From Parasitella parasitica (Eukaryota; Mucoromycota; Mucoromycetes; Mucorales; Mucoraceae): 64,000 bases of DNA. Below, piece by piece: positions 30,718 through 62,795 of the stretch. The position numbers were made by a program, and so were the translations under genes. Within the stretch, counting starts at the first letter, position 1; each line of letters opens with the position of its first letter. The DNA lies in assembly GCA_025201805.1 (NCBI GenBank), contig MU619394.1, positions 1 through 64,000 of the forward strand, in the 5' to 3' direction. The notes under the pieces were generated by a model that was not told the DNA's origin, did not search any database, and saw nothing but the letters and a program-made list of their open reading frames with translations.

Positions 30718-33700
30718 TTACTGGTGTCCTTTGAAACTGGCTTCTGCAATGCTCAAAAGTTCAGAGTATTCCCCACTTCTTTCGCACATTTGCTGGAAAA
30801 TGCTGCCATCTCTTGTCATGAGTTCATAAGGCGTGCCAAATTCTTTCACTTGGCCTTGATCCAAGACCAGAATACGATCATAATCGGCCACAGTGCGGAT
30901 GCGATGAGCAATGCAAAGTAAGGTGGAATCAGTAAACTCTTTTCTAATTGTTTCTTGGATCTGTTGATCAGTATCAAAGTCAACAGAGGAGGTAGCTTCG
31001 TCTAAAACGATCAATGAGGTCTTCTTGACAAGCGCTCTCGCCAATGCAATGAGTTGTCGTTGCCCCTGTGACCAGTTACTACCAGAGCTAGTGACTACAG
31101 AGTCTAATGTAATGATTCTTTCTGTATTGACTAACGATGACGAAGGTGATGGACTAGCAGATTGATTATGATGGCCTTGCTGTTGGTGCTGTTGGCCGTC
31201 AATGAGATGTGATCGTTTCAGCGCAGCCCACAGAACAGCGTCATCATACTGGCCAAATGGGTCCAAGTTGCTTCGCAGTGTGCCAGAAAAAAGCACAGGG
31301 TCTTGGGGGATGATGGTTAATCGTGACCTTAGATCATTCAGACCAATTGTATGAATGTCAACGCCATCGATGCAGATTTGACCAGACGTTGGTTCCATAA
31401 AACGGAACAGAGACATGGCCAGGGTTGATTTTCCAGAGCCCGTGCGTCCAACAATTCCAATCTTCTCTCTGGGTCTAGTTTCAAAGGAGATATCGCAAAG
31501 AACGGCTGGTGTGTCAGGAGCATATTTCATGACTAGATTTTTGACTTGAACAGTGCCTAATTCAGGCCATGAAATCCTAGGCGAAGTTTCGGGAATATAG
31601 GCAGGAGGCTCTTCTTCAATATCAAGATATTCATGGATACGTTCAATGGCATTCATATTCATCTCGTTGAAAGCATACATACGCACAACCCAAAGCACAT
31701 GTTGAGTAAATGTGAGTGAATAACTAAGAGAAAGGCCAGCTAAACCAGGATTAACCCAGTCTCTGGAGCTTACAAGCACAGCACCTGTACAAAAACTGAC
31801 AAAGGCGCCCAAAACGTCGACACGGCAATGAAGCCAGCGGTTGGTAGCCCACATCCATAGGAACGGCCGGTTGTTGGCATCGATACGTTTGTAGTTTTCT
31901 TCAGTGAACCGACGTTGACAGCCGAAGGCTCGAATAGTTGCAACACCCAGCACTGTTTCGTTGAACTGCACATAGATTGGACTACGCGATACAGCATTAA
32001 GACGCTTCATATCTCGAGAAGTCTTTAGATAATAAATGCCTACAGATCTAAACATCATTGCAACAAAAAAGCCAGGAACAATGAATGCAGGAGTAATGAC
32101 AGACACCAATACAATGACATAGATAGTTGCAATAACCGAGTACAAAAGAAAAGAAAGGGATGGCGCAACTGCTTGATCCACTGTCTCTAAATCAGAGGAG
32201 AATCTGTTTACAATACGGCCTAGTGGTGTTACATCGAAGAAACGAACTTTGGCACGAAGAATGCGGTCGAGCAATTCAGAATGGATTTTACGAGAAGCTT
32301 TGAGAGAGCCGAGGAAAAGAACAAGAGATCTTGTAGTAGTAAGACCAAGGGATAGCATGCCAATCAGAAAGTAGACACCGAGATAATATGCTACATTTAC
32401 TGCACTGCCATCTTTTATCTCTTGAGCAAAGGCCTTGACGGATTGAGGGGCCACATAGTGGAGCTTGTTGGCTAATTCTAGCTGACCCACACTGCCAGCA
32501 TGTCCTATGTACGAAAATGCTGTAAAAATGCTCTTCTCGCTTCCACTGTACGCCGCTGCACTTTGAGATGTCACTGTGCCATTGGAAATATTGTCGTACG
32601 CTGCAGACCAAACTTTGATCCAGTAATCCTGTCCCAGTACGGATGCCTGGGCACAGCAAAACAGCACTACAACGCAAGCCCAAAAAATGAACCCACCAGA
32701 AGCATAATAGTAGGTGCCATACACGGCCCATTTAACGCTTCCTTCTGCACGAGTCTCTTCTTTTACCAACTTTCCAGCACCATTAAGAGCAGATGCATCA
32801 TTTTGTGAGCTAATCTTTCTAGGGACAATAGGGATGGGACCATCAGTAGCAGCTTCTTCATTAGCATCAATCTGCTCCATGTAGCTTTCTTGTGAGAACT
32901 CGTTGCCCAAGGCACCCGATTTAACAACATCTAATGGCTTGCCTGCAGCTGCTACAGACCCGGATTCTTCGAGGGCAACTATGTAACCAGCACCGCGGAT
33001 ACAAAGACCAACATGGTGCGTGACTAAAATGACGGTGCGGTAACGCATATATTCGCCCATCAAGCAATGTTCATACAGATGTTTGGCAGTATGCGCATCA
33101 ACTGCGCTAAGACAATCATCTAGAATCACAATGTCTGCTTGAGAATACACTGCTCTTGCAATAGCGACTCTACAAACATGTTATTAGAAACAGTACGTGC
33201 GCACCCTCAACTAAAAACGAGTACTACATACCTTTGCTTTTGCCCACCACTTAAAGTAACGCCCTTTTCTCCAACTTCTGTCGAATCTCCAAACTCCAAA
33301 ATCTCGAGGTCTCTTGTCAAAGCCGTCATGTACAGAATATTATCATATTTTTCCTTGTCATAAGGTAGACCAAACAAGATGTTGTCTCTGATGCTACAGT
33401 TTTGAAGCCATGCTGTCTGTGCTACATACGCGATACCAGAAACAGCACCACCGACAGCAAAAGGTACAGACGCAGACGTGGCGTCTTTTCTCGGCAATAT
33501 AGCAGCGCCTGACAGACAATAGGTCTCGCCCAGCAGACTAAGCAAAAGAGTAGTCTTACCTGAGCCAGTAGGGCCACATACAATAGACATTTGGTTCAAG
33601 GGGAATGACAAATTGAGGTTCTTGATTTGGGGAGTTGATGGCTCCCCACTCTTTGATGAGCTCCAACTGAAGCTAGCATTGTCGACGAAACCAATACGGG

Positions 33701-35859
33701 TGCTTGATGTTGTATTAGGGGCAGGTAGCTTGACCTCCTCCTCCTTCAAGAAGGCTTGGATACGGCTTAAAGACACATTTGCTTGCAAAAGAAAAGAAGT
33801 AATGATAGGAAGTTCATCCAATGTAGTTTTGAAATTGTTGAACAGCGCAAGAGCAGTGAATGCAGTAGATGCAGTCAAGATGTAGACTCGAGTATAAGCG
33901 TAAAAGACAGCAACCATGATCAAGACAGGGATGATAAACCAGACGTTACCGATCCACATGTAGCTCATTAAACGGGCACGAATGACCTTGAGTTCAGTAT
34001 CTCTTGCTTCCATGATGCGAGCACGGAATTGCTTCTCCCAAGCGAAAAACTTGACGATGCGGATAGCAGACAGCAGCTCATTGACGAGACTGATGCGTTT
34101 GTCCGTGCATTTCATTGCAGCATGTTGCATTCTTTGAAAATGCCTGCTCAGCGCAAACGTTACAGGTTGAGACAGACAAATAATTAAAACGCCCCAAAGA
34201 GAGGCACTGCCCAACAGTTTGTACAGACTCCAGATACAAATGGTGATTTGGATGGGAAAACAGTAAATGTAGAAGATATAAGCCATTAGATCACCTAATT
34301 TCTGAGCGTCCACCGATAGTAAATTGTTGACATTGGCTTTTGGTTTATCCAGTGCAACACTGTTTGCCTTGCTGCTGTTACCTTCTTCGTCTCGGCGTCT
34401 CAATGATTTGCTGTAGACTTCACCGATAACAATAGACTGGATCTGAATACCAAGAGATCTGCCAATGTACAGAGCTTGCTGGTAACACAACGAGTGGCCA
34501 CAAGATGTCAAAAACAAGCAGGAGACATAGATAAAGGCCGACGACACAGTTTCATCTTGTTTACCATGCTCAATAAACTTGATTATCTTGTTTAAAAAGT
34601 AGGGAGGACCAAACATAAGCACAGACCATGCAAGGCAGTAAAAGAATTGAATGGTTAATGGTCTTTTGAACGTGGAAAAAAATTTCAACAGCATTGTAGC
34701 TTTCTTTTGAAGTCGGTAACGTTTCAACGTGTTTTTAGCTCTTTTCTCGGGAGTCACTTCAAACAAATCGTTGTCGTTCAATGTTTTGCGGTTGCCCTTT
34801 TCCATCATCGGGTTCACCCAAGAGAACATGAACCGCGAATAAAATGAAGCCCAATTTTCACCAGACATGACACGCCCCTATTTTTGGTTTTTAGATTGCA
34901 TGGATTACAATGAGTAAAAGATACCAGGACTTACCGTATCTGTAATTATAGGGCTTGCAGGAGCACAGCGGCTTTCATTTGAAACAGCCACTAATAGCAC
35001 CAATGTGATGGTCCCATACATTACTTCATGTTGATATCGTTGGCTCATCTCCAAAATATCATGCACCTGATAATATGCCGTGATATTCACTAATTGAACT
35101 ATAAAATCTAGTATATAAAGGTAGTTTAAATGCGTGCAGATGCTGTTAGAAAGTGATTTTCCGCCGATTGAAAGTGATAGACAGATATTGAGTAGAGCAA
35201 GAACAGCAGCATATGTCTATGGTATATGACTATTAATCAAACATAAAGCTACGCATAGTATCAGGAACCAAATTTACCCAGAATATAATGCGTGCATAAT
35301 ACATGTGCAGCAAATCAGTATATCTCCCTTCAACAACTACATCCATATTTGATTTATCTAATGATAGAGCCATATAAACAAGACATCCTAATTGCAGGCC
35401 TGACAAAAACAACCGCGTCCAGTTGTACGCTGACCATGGCTCACTCAACAATAGCTCAACAGATACAACCGTACTTGAGGTACTAACATCATCATTGCTT
35501 TCTTCGTTGTTGGATGTAGATGATGTGGACGCCGCTCCATAGATTGCATTTGTTTTTTGATTGATTGGCTTATACAGTGCTGTGTTTTCATTTCTACGAG
35601 CTTTAGTGGTTTCAAAGACCAACATAATGCAAGATACCACCACTAGAGCACTTGGCAGTATCGTATTGAGATATCTACGCACAAAATTTAAAACACTACC
35701 CAATTCTCTCTTCTTTTATACATATGTACCTTTCTCTAATACATGGTGTCAAAAAAAGACCGCCCTATATGGTTAGCAATAAAAAAATTCACATGATCAA
35801 TTTCACTTCAACTCCAACACCTTGACTCAAGCCCTTACCCAAAAGTCGCAATCCTCCAT
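30718..35859 (-). CDS. ABC-C (MRP/YCF1-type) full transporter
   Basis: Exons in transcript order: 35859-35839, 35764-35730, 35674-35278, 35216-34935, 34877-33232 and 33169-30718, all in phase, give 1610 aa. The N terminus MEDCDFWGGLFLTPCIRERY starts a TMD0, followed by TMD1, NBD1, TMD2 and NBD2. NBD1 has Walker A GPTGSGKTT, signature LSGGQKQR and Walker B IVILDDCLSAVD; the Asp after the Walker B Asp replaces the usual Glu, typical of the degenerate C-family site. NBD2 has GRTGSGKST, WSQGQRQLIALARAL and LIVLDEATSSVD. Members export or sequester glutathione conjugates and other organic anions, at the vacuole or plasma membrane. The substrate cannot be told from sequence. Confidence 0.95.
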
Positions 35860-36184
35860 TTTGGTTGTAAACTAAAACAAGAAAAGACAAGGCTATTGTA
35901 TATACAATGCGCCAAGATTCTAAAGAGATTTATGTAAGAAAGAAAGGAGGTACAAGTTGCTTTGAAAGGACCCAATTTATGAAACTTTTCGCAAAAAGGG
36001 AGTTTGTTCCAAATGTAGATTTTATTGCTTGTCATGAATATCGGGTTAATGTTTTCACCCCAGATTTTTTACTTGCTACTTAAAGAAAAACTTGAGTAAA
36101 AAGAAAATAATGGTTAGGATATTGACTTAAGTTTAGAATGTATATATACTTACATCTGTAAGGAGTATGAGAGAGTTATATCAA
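35860..36184. other. spacer upstream of ABC gene / 3' flank of Fanzor
   Basis: No gene is present. The part adjoining the Fanzor stop codon (about 36060-36184) is where a guide RNA would be expected in TnpB-like loci, but I can show no structure for it. Confidence 0.4.
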
Positions 36185-37739
36185 TCATACGGGCGAGGTG
36201 TGTCGCTTAAATATGTCTGGACGCTCGTTATTATTGAATACAGCGAAGAGAAAGATGTCCAATATGTTATTTGCGGCCATTATGTCGCGATTCCATACCG
36301 TATTACAAGTGTTTTGCTGACACTGCAATACGGCATGTACTCTTCGCACTGACTTGGCCGTTGTAACATTTTCCAAATTGCGTTCTTTACAGATGTTGCA
36401 AACTTGGCTTGTTAGGTACTCGTCTATCAAGCATATATCTAACGTCTCCCCACAGCGCTTCCTCAATGATTCCTTGATACGTCTTACTGGTGCTGATTTA
36501 TTCCCTCGAAGACTCCCATCATTGAACATCGCATTTCCTAGGGTGAGAATTGTTTTACGAGGTTTGATATAATGATCAATCGGTGTAGGTGGAATATAAC
36601 TAGTTTTTTGTTTCTTTTCTGTCATTCTTGACTTTTCACCGTATTTAGCGCTTCCATATGTAAGTCGTCGGCAGATTTCTTCTATGCATTTTTGTTTTTT
36701 TATGTCACATTTGAACTTAAGCTTGGAAGAACTAGAGTCGAACGTATTAGTAAAAGGTAAATAAATTTAATGTTGAGCGCTTACCGATCATCGCTGTCAT
36801 AATATTTTTTGATATCATCGTATAGATCAAATCGTTCTTTACATGCTTTTACAAAATCTTCTAAGTTAGTTGTCTTGAATGAGCTTAAAGTGGAAATTTT
36901 CTGATATTCGTTCATGTACTGTTTCTTATGCTGCTCTCTTTGTGTGCTAGCAACATTAAAGCCACAAAGGTGGTAGTACTCTTTTAAGCTTGTTGTTCTT
37001 TCTCTTCCTAATTGGTCGACAGCTGTTGTAATATCACGAATTCCCGGATCGATAGCAAAAATCTGGCAGCCAAGTTGAATATCATTAATAAAGTCTGAGG
37101 GTTGCTTTTCAACATAGCCTTCGTTTTTCTTCTTTACAGCACGAATAAAATGGAAAAAAAACTGAATAGCCATCTGTGGTAATCACATTACTAATACAAG
37201 GACAGTGCTATTTCTCAACAAAATCAAAGAAGCTTACTTGAAACGTTTTTTGCCCGTCGACAGACTTTCTCTTGTTCGAAATCCAAGCTTAGAAAAACGG
37301 AAAAGATTATGATGGGCATCTGTTAGCTCGGTTTCTGTCTTTTTGCCTGACCGATATCATGGTACGTCGGATTGTTTAACCAACCTCCACAGTGCTTGGG
37401 CTTCTATTTGTATTGCTTTGCTCTGTACAGTATAAACAGGAGCGATTGTGAAAAAGCGATAACCTCTAGGATCAGTATATTTGGCCGGGAAAAATGTTCC
37501 ATCGTCAATCCGTGCTTTGACGGTATCTATAAAGTGCTGGATAATTGAAATCTGCTGTGCAGTGAGTAAGGATAATTTTCTCCCTGATACAAAAGTCTCA
37601 TTCGAGTTAATCGACTGCAGAACTTGCTCTTGTAAAGATGGGAATTGCTTTCTGCTCAAAGTTTGAATGAATTGAATTTCTTGAAGTTTTCGATATACAT
37701 AGCCTTTACTAGCAACTTTTGACGGTGAAAAAATTCAAT
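36185..37739 (-). pseudogene. Fanzor (eukaryotic TnpB-like RNA-guided nuclease), decayed copy
   Basis: The C-terminal part reads through two exons, 37173-36785 and 36731-36185, in phase. It holds RuvC-I (IFAIDPGIRDITTAV), a GNAMFNDGSLRGNKSAP segment, the acidic DEYLTSQ motif, a zinc ribbon (CNIC ... CQQNTC) and RuvC-III (VWNRDIMAANNI). The N-terminal part (about 37739-37238) is open as KGYVYRKLQEIQFIQTL ... YRFFTIAPVYTVQSKAIQIE. It then meets an in-frame TGA at 37359-37357, continues as NLFRFSKLGFRTRESLSTGK, and is out of phase with the next exon after an A6 run. Fanzors are transposon-borne nucleases guided by an RNA from the locus. This copy is probably inactive as read. A hidden intron could remove the TGA, so intactness is not excluded. 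Confidence 0.85.
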
Positions 37740-39827
37740 TTCAAGTGAATGATAAAGGTCATGGTGATTTTGATGACATGTATTAGGGTTTTTGATAACA
37801 AACCTTTTATTTCTGATAAAAGCTGAGAAGTTTCTGAGAGAAGAGAAATGTCTCTCGAAGAATATTTCAAGTAGTATTTCTATTTTAGATTAAAAATGCC
37901 CAAGAATAGGGAACGTCTTGAAATAATATGCGAGATTGCGACGCCCTAATTATTTTATTTTTGATCAAACAGCCATTGTGCAAGAACGATAGGTATTTTT
38001 AAATGAATGACTATTTGGGTTTTTTAATAACCATTTTTCAATACAATGAAAAGACTTTAGCGACACTGACGACATGAACTTCAGATACCTGTAACTGAAC
38101 AATCACAAACGGATCACAATACAGAATTGTTTGAATTTCATAATTGATAAATTAATTCAGATATATCTGTTATTGGACATCTAAATAAGCCTAAATATTC
38201 AGACAAGTCATTGGTTTTTAAAATAAAAAATGGTTAAACCACAAAACCTTCAAAGTATCAAACAGTATATATTAATGCATGTACTCCTCAAATTATGCAT
38301 TTACACAATGGAAAATCATAACAGATTCTGCAAACGACAATCTCTATTTTTTTAACTTCATACCTATTATCATTTTGTGTTACATCTGTTACGTTAGGTC
38401 AGCATATTGAATATCAAAGAAAGAATATACTGTCAGGACTAGTTATAACAAAAATGTGTTTGGTATAGCGAATTATCCCTTAATGAAAATTTGATACTTA
38501 AAAGTACAGTGCCTGGGACCTGGAATCTACAAGAAGCTTATTATGAAGCTTAACTTTTGATAGTAAAACTACCTCGAACTCAATCTTAACTTCTATTTTA
38601 CTTTCTATTTTACATGTTTAGCATTATAATCACAAAAAAGGGAACTCTTGAACTGGCACCAAGCATTATTATAAGCAACAATGGTAATAGAGCTTCTCTG
38701 CCACTAGTAATTTATAAATTTTGAATTATTCACATACAACAAGGGGTAACTACAGCAAAGTATTCATTAATTATCCTCTTCCGCTTCCAACTCGATGGGT
38801 CACACCTGTTTTATCATATTACTATGAAGAAAAGTATACTTGCGGTATCAAAAATACCCACTTTATAGAGCTATGTCAAATACTAGAATTAATATTAACG
38901 TAATATCCTCTCCAGACACATGTTTTTTACTGCTTAAAAACAAGAACTTTAGTTTTGTGTGTCATTTTTTGATTGATTTTGATAATCAAAAGTGTCCTGA
39001 AAACACCAGAAATAGTATCTATTGGGAAAAAACTATATTATATATGATTTTGGTGCAATTTGAGCATGATTTTTTTTTCGATGCAAAATCATGAATTTTT
39101 TCGATTTTTTCCTTGTATCCACACATCAAAAATCATCAATTATGCATTATCCTCGATTTTGACCTCAAAAATGCAACTTTTGACTATGACATATATTGGA
39201 GGAAAAGGATCGTAAAAGACCATTCCATGATCTGAAAGACTGGCAATGCGTTTTGATTAAGCAAAATATTGACTTTTTCCTCTTAATCTGTTTTTGATGT
39301 TTTTTGGCAGAAATCCTTCTATAAGCATACGGGAATCATGAAATGGTACCATTGTGTAGAGCGCCCAAAAATACAGCTATTATCATAGACTGACAGCCGT
39401 GGTATGTATAGTATCAGAGGATGATATCTTGCCTTAAAGAAGTAATTTTGTTTTCTGATTGTACAAATGGAGTTTCTGAAAGAACTTTTCTTTTCTGATT
39501 TTGGATGCGTTTAATCTCCGCCATCAAACAAAATTGGTGTAATTTTTAAAGAAAGCGTTAGCTTTGAGAAGCCACAGCTTATCCAATTTAAGAGAGAAAC
39601 AATTGAAGCCTAGTTTATTTAAATTGTGTACTTCGTGGCTTTCTAATGGTAGCACTCGCATGTCTGTACCTGGCCAGACGATCTCACGCTCCGACTTTGA
39701 AAAATACTTTTCCAAAAAAGTCGTTCCTTTCATCTGATGTCAACTTGAAAAGTACAAAAACTTGCTCTAGGCTATGCAAAAGTTTGATCAAAAGGTGCCT
39801 TATAGTCTAATGCATTACTTTGAATTA
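37740..39827. other. A+T-rich spacer, probable relic mobile DNA
   Basis: Only short frames without recognisable motifs are present. Its position between the Fanzor relic and the MITE suggests an old insertion area. Confidence 0.4.
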
Positions 39828-40307: not shown

Positions 40308-41300
40308 TACTTGTTTTTGTGTTTGAGATCGTTAAACATTGTTCTCTTACAGTTTTTGTCTTTTTTCTGACAATAGCACCCTGAAGTTTGCGTAGACCAA
40401 AAAAAAAAAAAAAGAAAAAACGGGCGCCCAAAATCTACGCTGTATGAATGGGTGGTGATTTACCCTGGTGGCAGATTGTTTCATTTTCTCCGGCATTTTC
40501 TTATACCCTCAGTTGATCTGGCATCTTCTAGTCTAGAAGGTCTTGTCAGACAAGTCCCAAGCTGGGTTCTGTATATCCAGTTGCACAATAGAACAGCTAG
40601 TCAAACCTGTGTCATCTTTTCCATAACGCTGGAATGTTTCAAAAGTGTATGTCTTTGTGAAGCCAAAAAATTATCTGTGTAGAAATTTAGGACATAAATG
40701 TGTTCATCTCGACCTTGCCCATTCCTCCTCGAACGGTTTCAAAGACCGTTTAAAGCAGCAATAGTCTTCAAGTTGTAAAAAATTCATGGATTGTGTTTAT
40801 CAAAGCACGATTAACTTAACTTCGTCAATGACAATCGTTCATGTTGTACTTTTTCTTTCTTTCAAGTTTCATAATAGCTTCCAACCTCCAATTTTTACCA
40901 GAAAGCTTATTGCATATATGGTTGTACTGAGGAGATTGTTAATTCACTAATCGTCTCCAAATGTTAATGAAGGCACAAAATCTCTATAGTTGAGAAATCG
41001 CTTCCGCTACAACAACGATTACACAAGAAAATAAAAATCAATAAAGCTGGAATTATACTGATAATGTATCCAGGTACAACCTCCTGGGATCAAATTTTAA
41101 CTTGATATAGATTTCTAATAACGTTAGTCTTGTAATATTCGTTAGCAGACAGGTTGATGCAGAAAGTTCACTGAAAGGTCAACATCAACACGAGCCTTCG
41201 TGACCGCTGCTACATCCCAACCCATCCCCCCGCACAAACGTGTTTCAAAAAAGATCAGTTTATACTTGATTCTTTTTACTTTTAAAGTATATTACAAAAT
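40308..41300. other. spacer with poly-A tract, no gene
   Basis: A poly-A stretch at about 40400-40427 lies between tgcgtagac and atctacgc, a short imperfect inverted pair. Nothing coding was recognised. Confidence 0.45.
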
Positions 41301-62424: not shown

Positions 62425-62795
62425 TTACAATCCTTTTTCACAATTCAAGCATCTCTGCCAGAACGTCAAAGAATGCTTTATCCAATTCTCGCAGCCTTCT
62501 CTGCTGATGTAAAATGATGCATTGCGAATACGATCAGAGATTTTTTTATTCTGCCTGACAGAAGAGGGATCGTTATTTACAACAGTCTTCAGCTTGGACC
62601 AAAACTCTTCGATTGGATTCAAAAAAGGAGAATAAGGGGGCAAAAAGAGAAGTTTATAGCCACGTTGATCTGCCATGATTATAGACAGGAGATCATGGCA
62701 ATGTACTTCAATTGAAGATTGAGGATTGTTGTCTAATGATGTGATTTGATACGCTTGTGTAAATTGGAGAATAAAGTCTCTGTTTCAAATCAAGA
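62425..62795 (-). pseudogene. relic Tc1/mariner-type DDE transposase C terminus
   Basis: An open segment reads DFILQFTQAYQITSLDNNPQ ... LFLPPYSPFLNPIEEFWSKL, the DDE_3 C-terminal signature with the final catalytic Glu, and ends at TAA (62427-62425). The upstream part (about 62795-62940) no longer reads as the rest of the catalytic domain, and the usual DNAP motif is missing. No terminal repeats were found. Confidence 0.8.

What the first reader, a model, noticed from the sequence alone, without database searches (positions are those of the whole stretch)
36185..37739. Fanzor locus with an open RuvC core and damaged N-terminal half
All diagnostic parts of a eukaryotic TnpB homologue are present (AIDPGIRDITTAV, DEYLTSQ, zinc ribbon CNIC/CQQNTC, VWNRDIMAANNI), split by an intron that keeps phase. 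The N-terminal half has TGA at 37359-37357 and a frame conflict at an A6 run near 37250. Family knowledge: Fanzors are RNA-guided DNA nucleases in fungi and other eukaryotes. The mix of constrained core and broken N terminus suggests recent decay, or an unannotated intron.
Basis: partly seen in the sequence, partly recalled or inferred. Interest (0 to 1): 0.75.

Follow-up and report, generated by a model that had tools for sequence, protein, structure and literature searches.

The report
Broken fragment of a fungal Fanzor
This is a dead piece of a jumping-gene-borne RNA-guided DNA cutter (Fanzor) in the fungus Parasitella parasitica, one of several damaged copies in that genome and of a kind already known.

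Summary
The Fanzor call is right. The minus strand at 37723-36084 carries the RuvC and zinc-ribbon half of a Fanzor1 gene, cut by two small introns. It is an internal fragment of about 1.64 kb from a ~3.8-kb element. The best sibling (contig C25) has ~190-bp inverted repeats flanked by TA. The window copy lacks both element ends and the upstream coding DNA that C25 has.

The TGA is real. Of the three copies readable there, C2 shares it and C25 does not, and the reading continues on both sides, so it is a nonsense codon, most simply older than this copy, and not an intron. The frame conflict is real but misplaced: the A6 run is the same in C25 and in frame; the shift is a one-base difference near 37152-37161.

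The genome is Parasitella parasitica: one named protein matches at 100% on a contig of exactly the same length. A Fanzor1 from this species already has solved structures (PMC11423790), and mariner-type Fanzor1 elements and partial copies are published.

Verdict: a decayed new member of a known kind. Mildly new: Fanzors only 30-48% alike have similar element ends.

The parts
36084..37723 (-). Fanzor1 element fragment (all that is left here of a ~3.8-kb TIR element)
   Evidence: 97.4% identical to C25 over 37680-36084 and 97.5% to C2 over 37723-37319; the stretch 36090-35600 has no other match in the genome
37238..37723 (-). coding block A (from inside the protein up to intron 1), interrupted by a TGA at 37359-37357
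   Evidence: the same TGA occurs in the C2 copy
   Evidence: in C25 it joins block A in frame to VITTDGYSV; no transcript seen
36785..37190 (-). coding block B: WED TDG motif, then RuvC-I AIDPGIRD at 37053-37042; one-base frame break near 37152-37161
   Evidence: 106 of 106 residues identical to P0001 over 37101-36784
36732..36784 (-). intron 2 (53 bp, GTAAGC...CTCTAG), phase kept
   Evidence: P0001 is joined at this point
36185..36731 (-). coding block C: catalytic E in DEYLTSQ, zinc ribbon, WNRD, stop codon 36187-36185
   Evidence: PF07282 28.3 bits; GtFz1 E = 3.5e-5
36084..36184 (-). first 101 bp after the stop codon; about 257 bp more, to the element's right end in C25, are missing
   Evidence: 4 differences in 101 bp to C25; the other five copies share the DNA beyond this point, the window does not
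37727..39546 (.). neighbouring dispersed repeat abutting the fragment, possibly a mariner-like relic; not part of the Fanzor element
   Evidence: stretches of 72-86% identity to L027-L029; by eye its terminal ~20 bp are missing at the junction

Best explanation
The locus is a pseudogene fragment of a Fanzor1 gene. Shown: the complete relative in the same genome (C25) is a ~3.8-kb element with ~190-bp inverted repeats, tipped CAGT (CGGT at its right end) and flanked by TA; I noticed no gene in it other than Fanzor, though its left part was not scanned with domain models. The window keeps only the middle (about 43%), with one nonsense codon and one frame break, without the upstream coding DNA and without the right end. 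Inferred from published work on other Fanzor1s: a working member is carried by a Tc1/mariner-type non-autonomous element moved in trans by a transposase made elsewhere; its guide RNA is read from the 3' end through the right inverted repeat into the flank; the RNP cuts the matching empty site and so favours keeping the element. The window copy cannot do this, because it lacks both a complete protein and the right end. It most likely arose when an already dead copy (TGA shared with C2) was cut down by neighbouring transposon activity or deletion.
For: Fanzor motifs and introns; PF07282 above cut-off; the best PDB matches are Guillardia theta Fanzor1 and Spizellomyces punctatus Fanzor1; a near-identical Parasitella protein, P0001; five siblings sharing the window's 3' part at 96.6-99.1% DNA identity; TIRs and TA flanks in siblings; TGA shared with C2; frame break relative to C25; both window junctions leave the element, and no other piece of the C25 or C2 element was found in the window.
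Against: Overall synonymous excess (12 of 27 changes, P = 0.005) shows that the lineage was under selection at some time. No RNA data exist here, so transcription of the fragment is not excluded. No transposase with these TIRs was found, and 4 of the 19 element ends that I could read are not preceded by TA, so the mariner assignment is an inference. The C25 right end did not fold better than shuffles (z = 0.59, 138 of 200 shuffles fold at least as well), so the guide RNA is not shown.
Confidence: 0.93

Rival explanations
1. A functional gene whose TGA and frame shift are hidden in unannotated introns.
For: Two introns are inferred, and small introns could in principle hide lesions.
Against: C25 reads continuously over the TGA position, and the 50%-identical C169 paralogue has neither stop nor gap at that position. 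C25 also reads on through the place of the window's frame break; P0001 begins downstream of it and says nothing there. The window also lacks the upstream coding DNA and right end that C25 has.
Confidence: 0.03
2. A truncated but kept RuvC/TNB fragment with a host role (a domesticated piece beside the ABC transporter gene whose frames lie at 33207-34877 and probably 30718-33150).
For: Blocks B and C have few replacements (1 of 4 and 5 of 10 changes), and the frame of block C is open for 193 codons.
Against: Blocks B and C are separated by an intron, and block B is out of frame with what precedes it. C25 and C2 are decayed too. No transcript is known.
Confidence: 0.03
3. The lesions are assembly errors in a repeat.
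For: Three of the five sibling copies are cut by N gaps and one by a contig end, so this repeat assembled badly.
Against: The window has no N in the fragment, the TGA is also present in C2, and both junctions lead into non-Fanzor DNA.
Confidence: 0.04

Closest known systems
PpFz1, Parasitella parasitica Fanzor1 (PDB 9cf0-9cf3; PMC11423790)
   Same: Same species, Fanzor1, RuvC and TNB domains; RNA-guided DNA cleavage in vitro is in print (passages read).
   Different: A different, divergent family: P0001 and block C do not match PpFz1 in PDB at E up to 1, whereas another locus, C16:44984-46159, does at 1.2e-94. The window copy is dead.
BD408DRAFT_351345 (P0001), Parasitella parasitica hypothetical protein, partial
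   Same: 106 of 106 residues identical in block B and 172 of 184 aligned in block C; same intron 2.
   Different: Open over 286 residues; the record holds only the C-terminal half. Its contig is given as 115,899 bases, and no identical match was found in the held genome.
SpuFz1 elements of Spizellomyces punctatus (PMC10432273)
   Same: Fanzor1 in inverted-repeat elements with no transposase found inside them; many partial copies (42 loci full-length or partial, 19 full length; passages read); two conserved bases (CA) outside the left end.
   Different: 30-nt inverted repeats and a ~2.1-kb locus there; ~190-bp repeats and ~3.8 kb here; AA outside the left end here, on few examples.
Tc1/mariner-type Fanzor1 elements such as PUl-4 (PMC3627910, section 7 read)
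   Same: Fanzor without transposase, TIRs, TA duplications.
   Different: There the TIRs match confirmed mariners; here no autonomous partner with these TIRs was found.

Membership tests
Fanzor1 | RuvC-I DPG motif (PMC10711439) | tested here: met
   AIDPGIRD at 37053-37042
Fanzor1 | Catalytic E six residues before the first zinc-ribbon Cys (Ealt) | tested here: met
   E-YLTSQV-CNIC in block C; E209 invariant in 12 of 12 aligned rows
Fanzor1 | TNB/zinc ribbon and third catalytic D | tested here: met
   PF07282 28.3 bits, cut-off 26.3; WNRDIMAANNI
Fanzor1 | TDG motif in WED | tested here: met
   VITTDGYSV after intron 1, just before the frame break
Fanzor1 | Nearest solved structures are Fanzor1 and not TnpB or Cas12 | tested here: met
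   only GtFz1 and SpuFz1 below E = 0.1
Fanzor1 | Complete protein with N-terminal REC part | tested here: not met
   The fragment starts at 37723; the upstream coding frames seen by eye in C25 were not found elsewhere in the window; one TGA and one frame break
Fanzor1 | Guide RNA from the right end | tested here: inconclusive
   Right end absent from the window; sibling right ends conserved, but that of C25 folds no better than shuffles
Fanzor1 | RNA-guided DNA cleavage | not testable with these tools
   Needs protein and RNA work
Tc1/mariner-type non-autonomous element | TA target duplication and TIRs | tested here: met
   Met in siblings, not in the window copy. TA stands outside 15 of 19 distinct ends that I could read: 10 of 11 (12 rows, one place listed twice), 2 of 4, 3 of 4 by eye. 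Both ends of C25 and of C44 have it
Tc1/mariner-type non-autonomous element | An autonomous partner with DDE transposase and the same TIRs | tested here: inconclusive
   163 PF13358 matches (150 of 301 candidates scored, not all listed); none of those listed lies within 10 kb of a TIR place or 26
Fanzor2 / IS607 | Serine-recombinase TnpA partner | not tested
   -

The most novel reading that the evidence does not exclude
In this fungus several Fanzor1 families that are only about 30-48% alike in protein have related element ends and are spread on one TIR platform by one transposase. The bases AA(TA) just outside the left end would be the common target-adjacent motif, so Fanzor genes would be exchangeable cargo while ends and motif stay fixed. 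(Lowered from 0.3 on checking: the ends are 79-86% alike, and the left-end motif holds at 3 of 5 readable left ends.)
Probability: 0.25. Interest if true: 0.45.

Novelty: new member of a known kind. Interest (0 to 1): 0.2.

Why it matters
The window locus itself matters little: it is a relic. Its genome is a good place to study how Fanzor1 and a transposon live together. P0001 matches 86 stretches, 53 places by my hand grouping, divergent Fanzors have related element ends, and one Fanzor1 of the species already has structures and a target motif in print.

Tried and rejected
Five-prime truncation by a retrotransposon or Helitron: at first the siblings seemed to share a 3' end with ragged 5' ends. 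The 5' ends in C4 and C46 are N gaps, C2 has a gap inside, and C8 ends its contig. Moreover the common 3' end is where the window copy stops; the others run on. Rejected.

Giant Fanzor fusion proteins: the 'open frame' lengths of 4642, 2096, 1124, 651 and 554 aa looked odd. All five are N gaps translated as X. Rejected; other long frames listed were not examined.

Horizontal transfer between mycoparasite and host: raised because the best match to the Fanzor is from Parasitella. Dropped because the window genome is itself Parasitella.

Suppressed or recoded TGA: no support; the C25 copy has a sense codon there and the C169 paralogue has no stop there.

Viral relatives: five stretches matched a pattern in viral contigs and none was confirmed. 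Rfam: no match at gathering scores in the window or in L033. Guide-RNA fold of the C25 right end: z = 0.59.

Left-end AATA motif: 3 of 5 readable left ends carry it (C25, C188, C44); C106 reads CA and C39 reads GA. The left ends of C2 and of C77:44041 lack the tip and were not counted. Ends of unknown side split 2 (C77:32908, C16:304661) against 2 (C8:60583 and C69, both CTA). Right ends vary: ATA at C8 and C16, TTA at C25 and C46, CTA at C2, CA at C77. Suggestive only.

Full report
What is in the window. On the minus strand, 37723 to 36084 holds a piece of a Fanzor1 gene. Block C (36731-36185) is recognised by PF07282 (28.3 bits, cut-off 26.3). Its best PDB sequence matches are Guillardia theta Fanzor1 (E = 3.5e-5) and Spizellomyces punctatus Fanzor1 (0.075). 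P0001, a Parasitella protein covering RuvC-I to the C terminus, gives SpuFz1 3.3e-5 and GtFz1 8e-5. Blocks A and B alone matched no Pfam family over its cut-off, and C25 block A matched nothing in PDB. NCBIfam TnpB models match block C far below their cut-offs. The glutamate sits six residues before the first zinc-ribbon cysteine and the RuvC-I motif is DPG. These are the Fanzor fingerprints given in PMC10711439 (passages read). The TDG motif that the paper describes for the Fanzor1 WED domain is present after intron 1.

Gene structure. There are two introns, not one. Intron 1 is 37237-37191. In C25, splicing it joins block A in frame to VITTDGYSV. Both are inferred from frames and splice signals, not from transcripts.

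Lesions. The TGA at 37359-37357 is present in the C2 copy but not in C25, the only three copies readable there. The C169 paralogue, 50% identical, has no stop or gap at this position, though it has a stop elsewhere. So it is a nonsense codon that most simply predates this copy. The A6 run near 37250 is identical in C25 and causes no conflict. Between the TDG motif and IRAVKKK the window changes frame by one base, at a T run near 37152-37161. C25 does not have that difference but has its own TAA further down block B.

The fragment. BLAST of the window region against the siblings gave C25 97.4% over 1597 bp, C4 96.6% over 507, C46 97.6% over 370, C8 97.9% over 237, and C2 97.5% over 405 plus 99.1% over 107. 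The apparent 5' ends of C4 and C46 are N gaps, C2 has an internal gap and C8 ends its contig. C25 is the complete comparison: an element of ~3.8 kb (L033 1617-5420) with ~190-bp inverted repeats, 96.3% alike. Against it the window lacks about 1.9 kb at the left and about 257 bp at the right. No other part of the C25 or C2 element was found in the window. On the left the fragment abuts a dispersed repeat at 37727, whose own terminal ~20 bp look missing (by eye). On the right the DNA (36090-35600) has no other match in the genome.

Constraint. Window against C25: block A 4 synonymous and 9 replacement changes, block B 3 and 1, block C 5 and 5. Total 12 of 27 synonymous; binomial P = 0.005 against the site fraction. 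Block A against B plus C: Fisher P = 0.25. Left out of these counts: stop codons, gaps, 37723-37681 (C25 differs wholly there) and 37190-37147 around the frame break. The family was under selection at some time; a sharp contrast between halves is not shown.

Which organism. P0132 (BD408DRAFT_416305, Parasitella parasitica, contig 225,751) matches C42 over 431 of 431 residues, and C42 is 225,751 bases long. The window therefore lies in that Parasitella assembly or one sharing that contig. One loose end: P0001 bears the same locus-tag prefix but has no identical match in the held genome.

The family at large. PF07282 found 36 stretches, 32 of them over the cut-off. P0001 found 86 stretches, which I group by hand into 53 places. 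The TIR (L033:1612-1830) has 17 matches. Four of them lie beside divergent Fanzors at C77, C44, C39 and C33 (34, 38, 30 and 30% identical to block C), at 81, 86, 84 and 86% DNA identity over 68-137 bp. Others lie near Fanzor-like frames at C16 and C22. The C106 Fanzor (48%) has a tip with 3 mismatches about 1.2 kb upstream. Right ends of C25, C46, C2, C8, C77, C33 and C16 align with 52 invariant columns, mostly in the last ~100 bp; the first four are one family. The tip pattern gave 14 matches and 0 for the reversed control.

Target site. In one search, TA precedes 10 of 11 distinct tips (13 loci were given; L059 and L060 gave no tip; L049-L053, L057, L061 and L062 were not given). One search adds four tips, two with TA. 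By eye, the right ends of C44 and of the small C16 element and of C33 have TA, and the C39 left end has GA. In all 15 of 19.

How a working member would act. By analogy with published Fanzor1s, the protein binds an RNA made from the element's right end and flank and cuts DNA beside a short motif. PMC11423790 reports a 5'-ATN motif for PpFz1 (passages). PMC10711439 reports RNAs extending ~15 nt past the duplication in an insect-virus Fanzor1, with TIR and TSD predicted to be part of the scaffold (passages). In S. punctatus two bases, CA, are conserved outside the left end and the motif is CATA (PMC10432273). Here AATA stands at 3 of 5 readable left ends, which would fit ATN, but the sample is small and other ends differ. 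None of this applies to the window copy, which lacks the right end.

Known or new. Fanzor1 in TA-flanked mariner-type elements is published (PMC3627910, section 7 read, other passages). Partial copies are published (PMC10432273). The species has a published Fanzor1. My paper searches 'Fanzor + transposon + fungi' (22 papers, 21 listed), 'Fanzor + Mucor' (2), 'Parasitella + Fanzor' (1) and 'Fanzor + Lichtheimia' (0) listed nothing whose title or abstract start describes this particular family. I read passages of four papers, none in full; supplements could not be opened. The finding is ordinary: a decayed new member of a known kind.

Noticed in passing
37727-39546 (and 40466-40665): Dispersed repeat (matching stretches 72-91% alike in L027-L032). 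Four of the 34 copies listed (a lower bound: 40 of 199 candidates scored) have a DDE_3 transposase match within about 2 kb, so it may be a mariner-like relic.
   Followed up: partly
30718-34877: ABC transporter gene on the same strand, downstream of the Fanzor fragment: PF00664 and PF00005 in the frame 33207-34877, probably continuing in 30718-33150 (not scanned). The ABCC label would be from recall.
   Followed up: no
62569-62706 (C158): DDE_3 transposase fragment in the window.
   Followed up: no
L061:1-1176 (C16:44984-46159): 392-codon open frame that is the close relative of the structurally solved PpFz1 (E = 1.2e-94); a TIR tip of the same class (3 mismatches) lies about 2 kb downstream. 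Whether it bounds that element was not tested.
   Followed up: partly
L056 (C16:304661) and L078 (C8:60583): Short elements (about 65 and 105 bp) made of little more than Fanzor-element TIRs, like miniature or 'ghost' elements; one end of the C8 one is not flanked by TA.
   Followed up: partly
L033:5420-6551 and L036:6907-8021: A 1.1-kb repeat 98% alike lies beside the Fanzor element in C25 and about 0.6 kb from it in C2. In C25 its start and end both read CCGTAAACTAGTGA; by eye it looks like a reverse-transcriptase relic.
   Followed up: no
L033:3528-3571 against L036: About 40 bp of C25 just upstream of block A is unlike C2 and the window, as if replaced by another sequence.
   Followed up: no
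P0018, a GATA protein from another record named P. parasitica, is only 77% identical to the window's, so two rather different lineages may share that name.
   Followed up: partly
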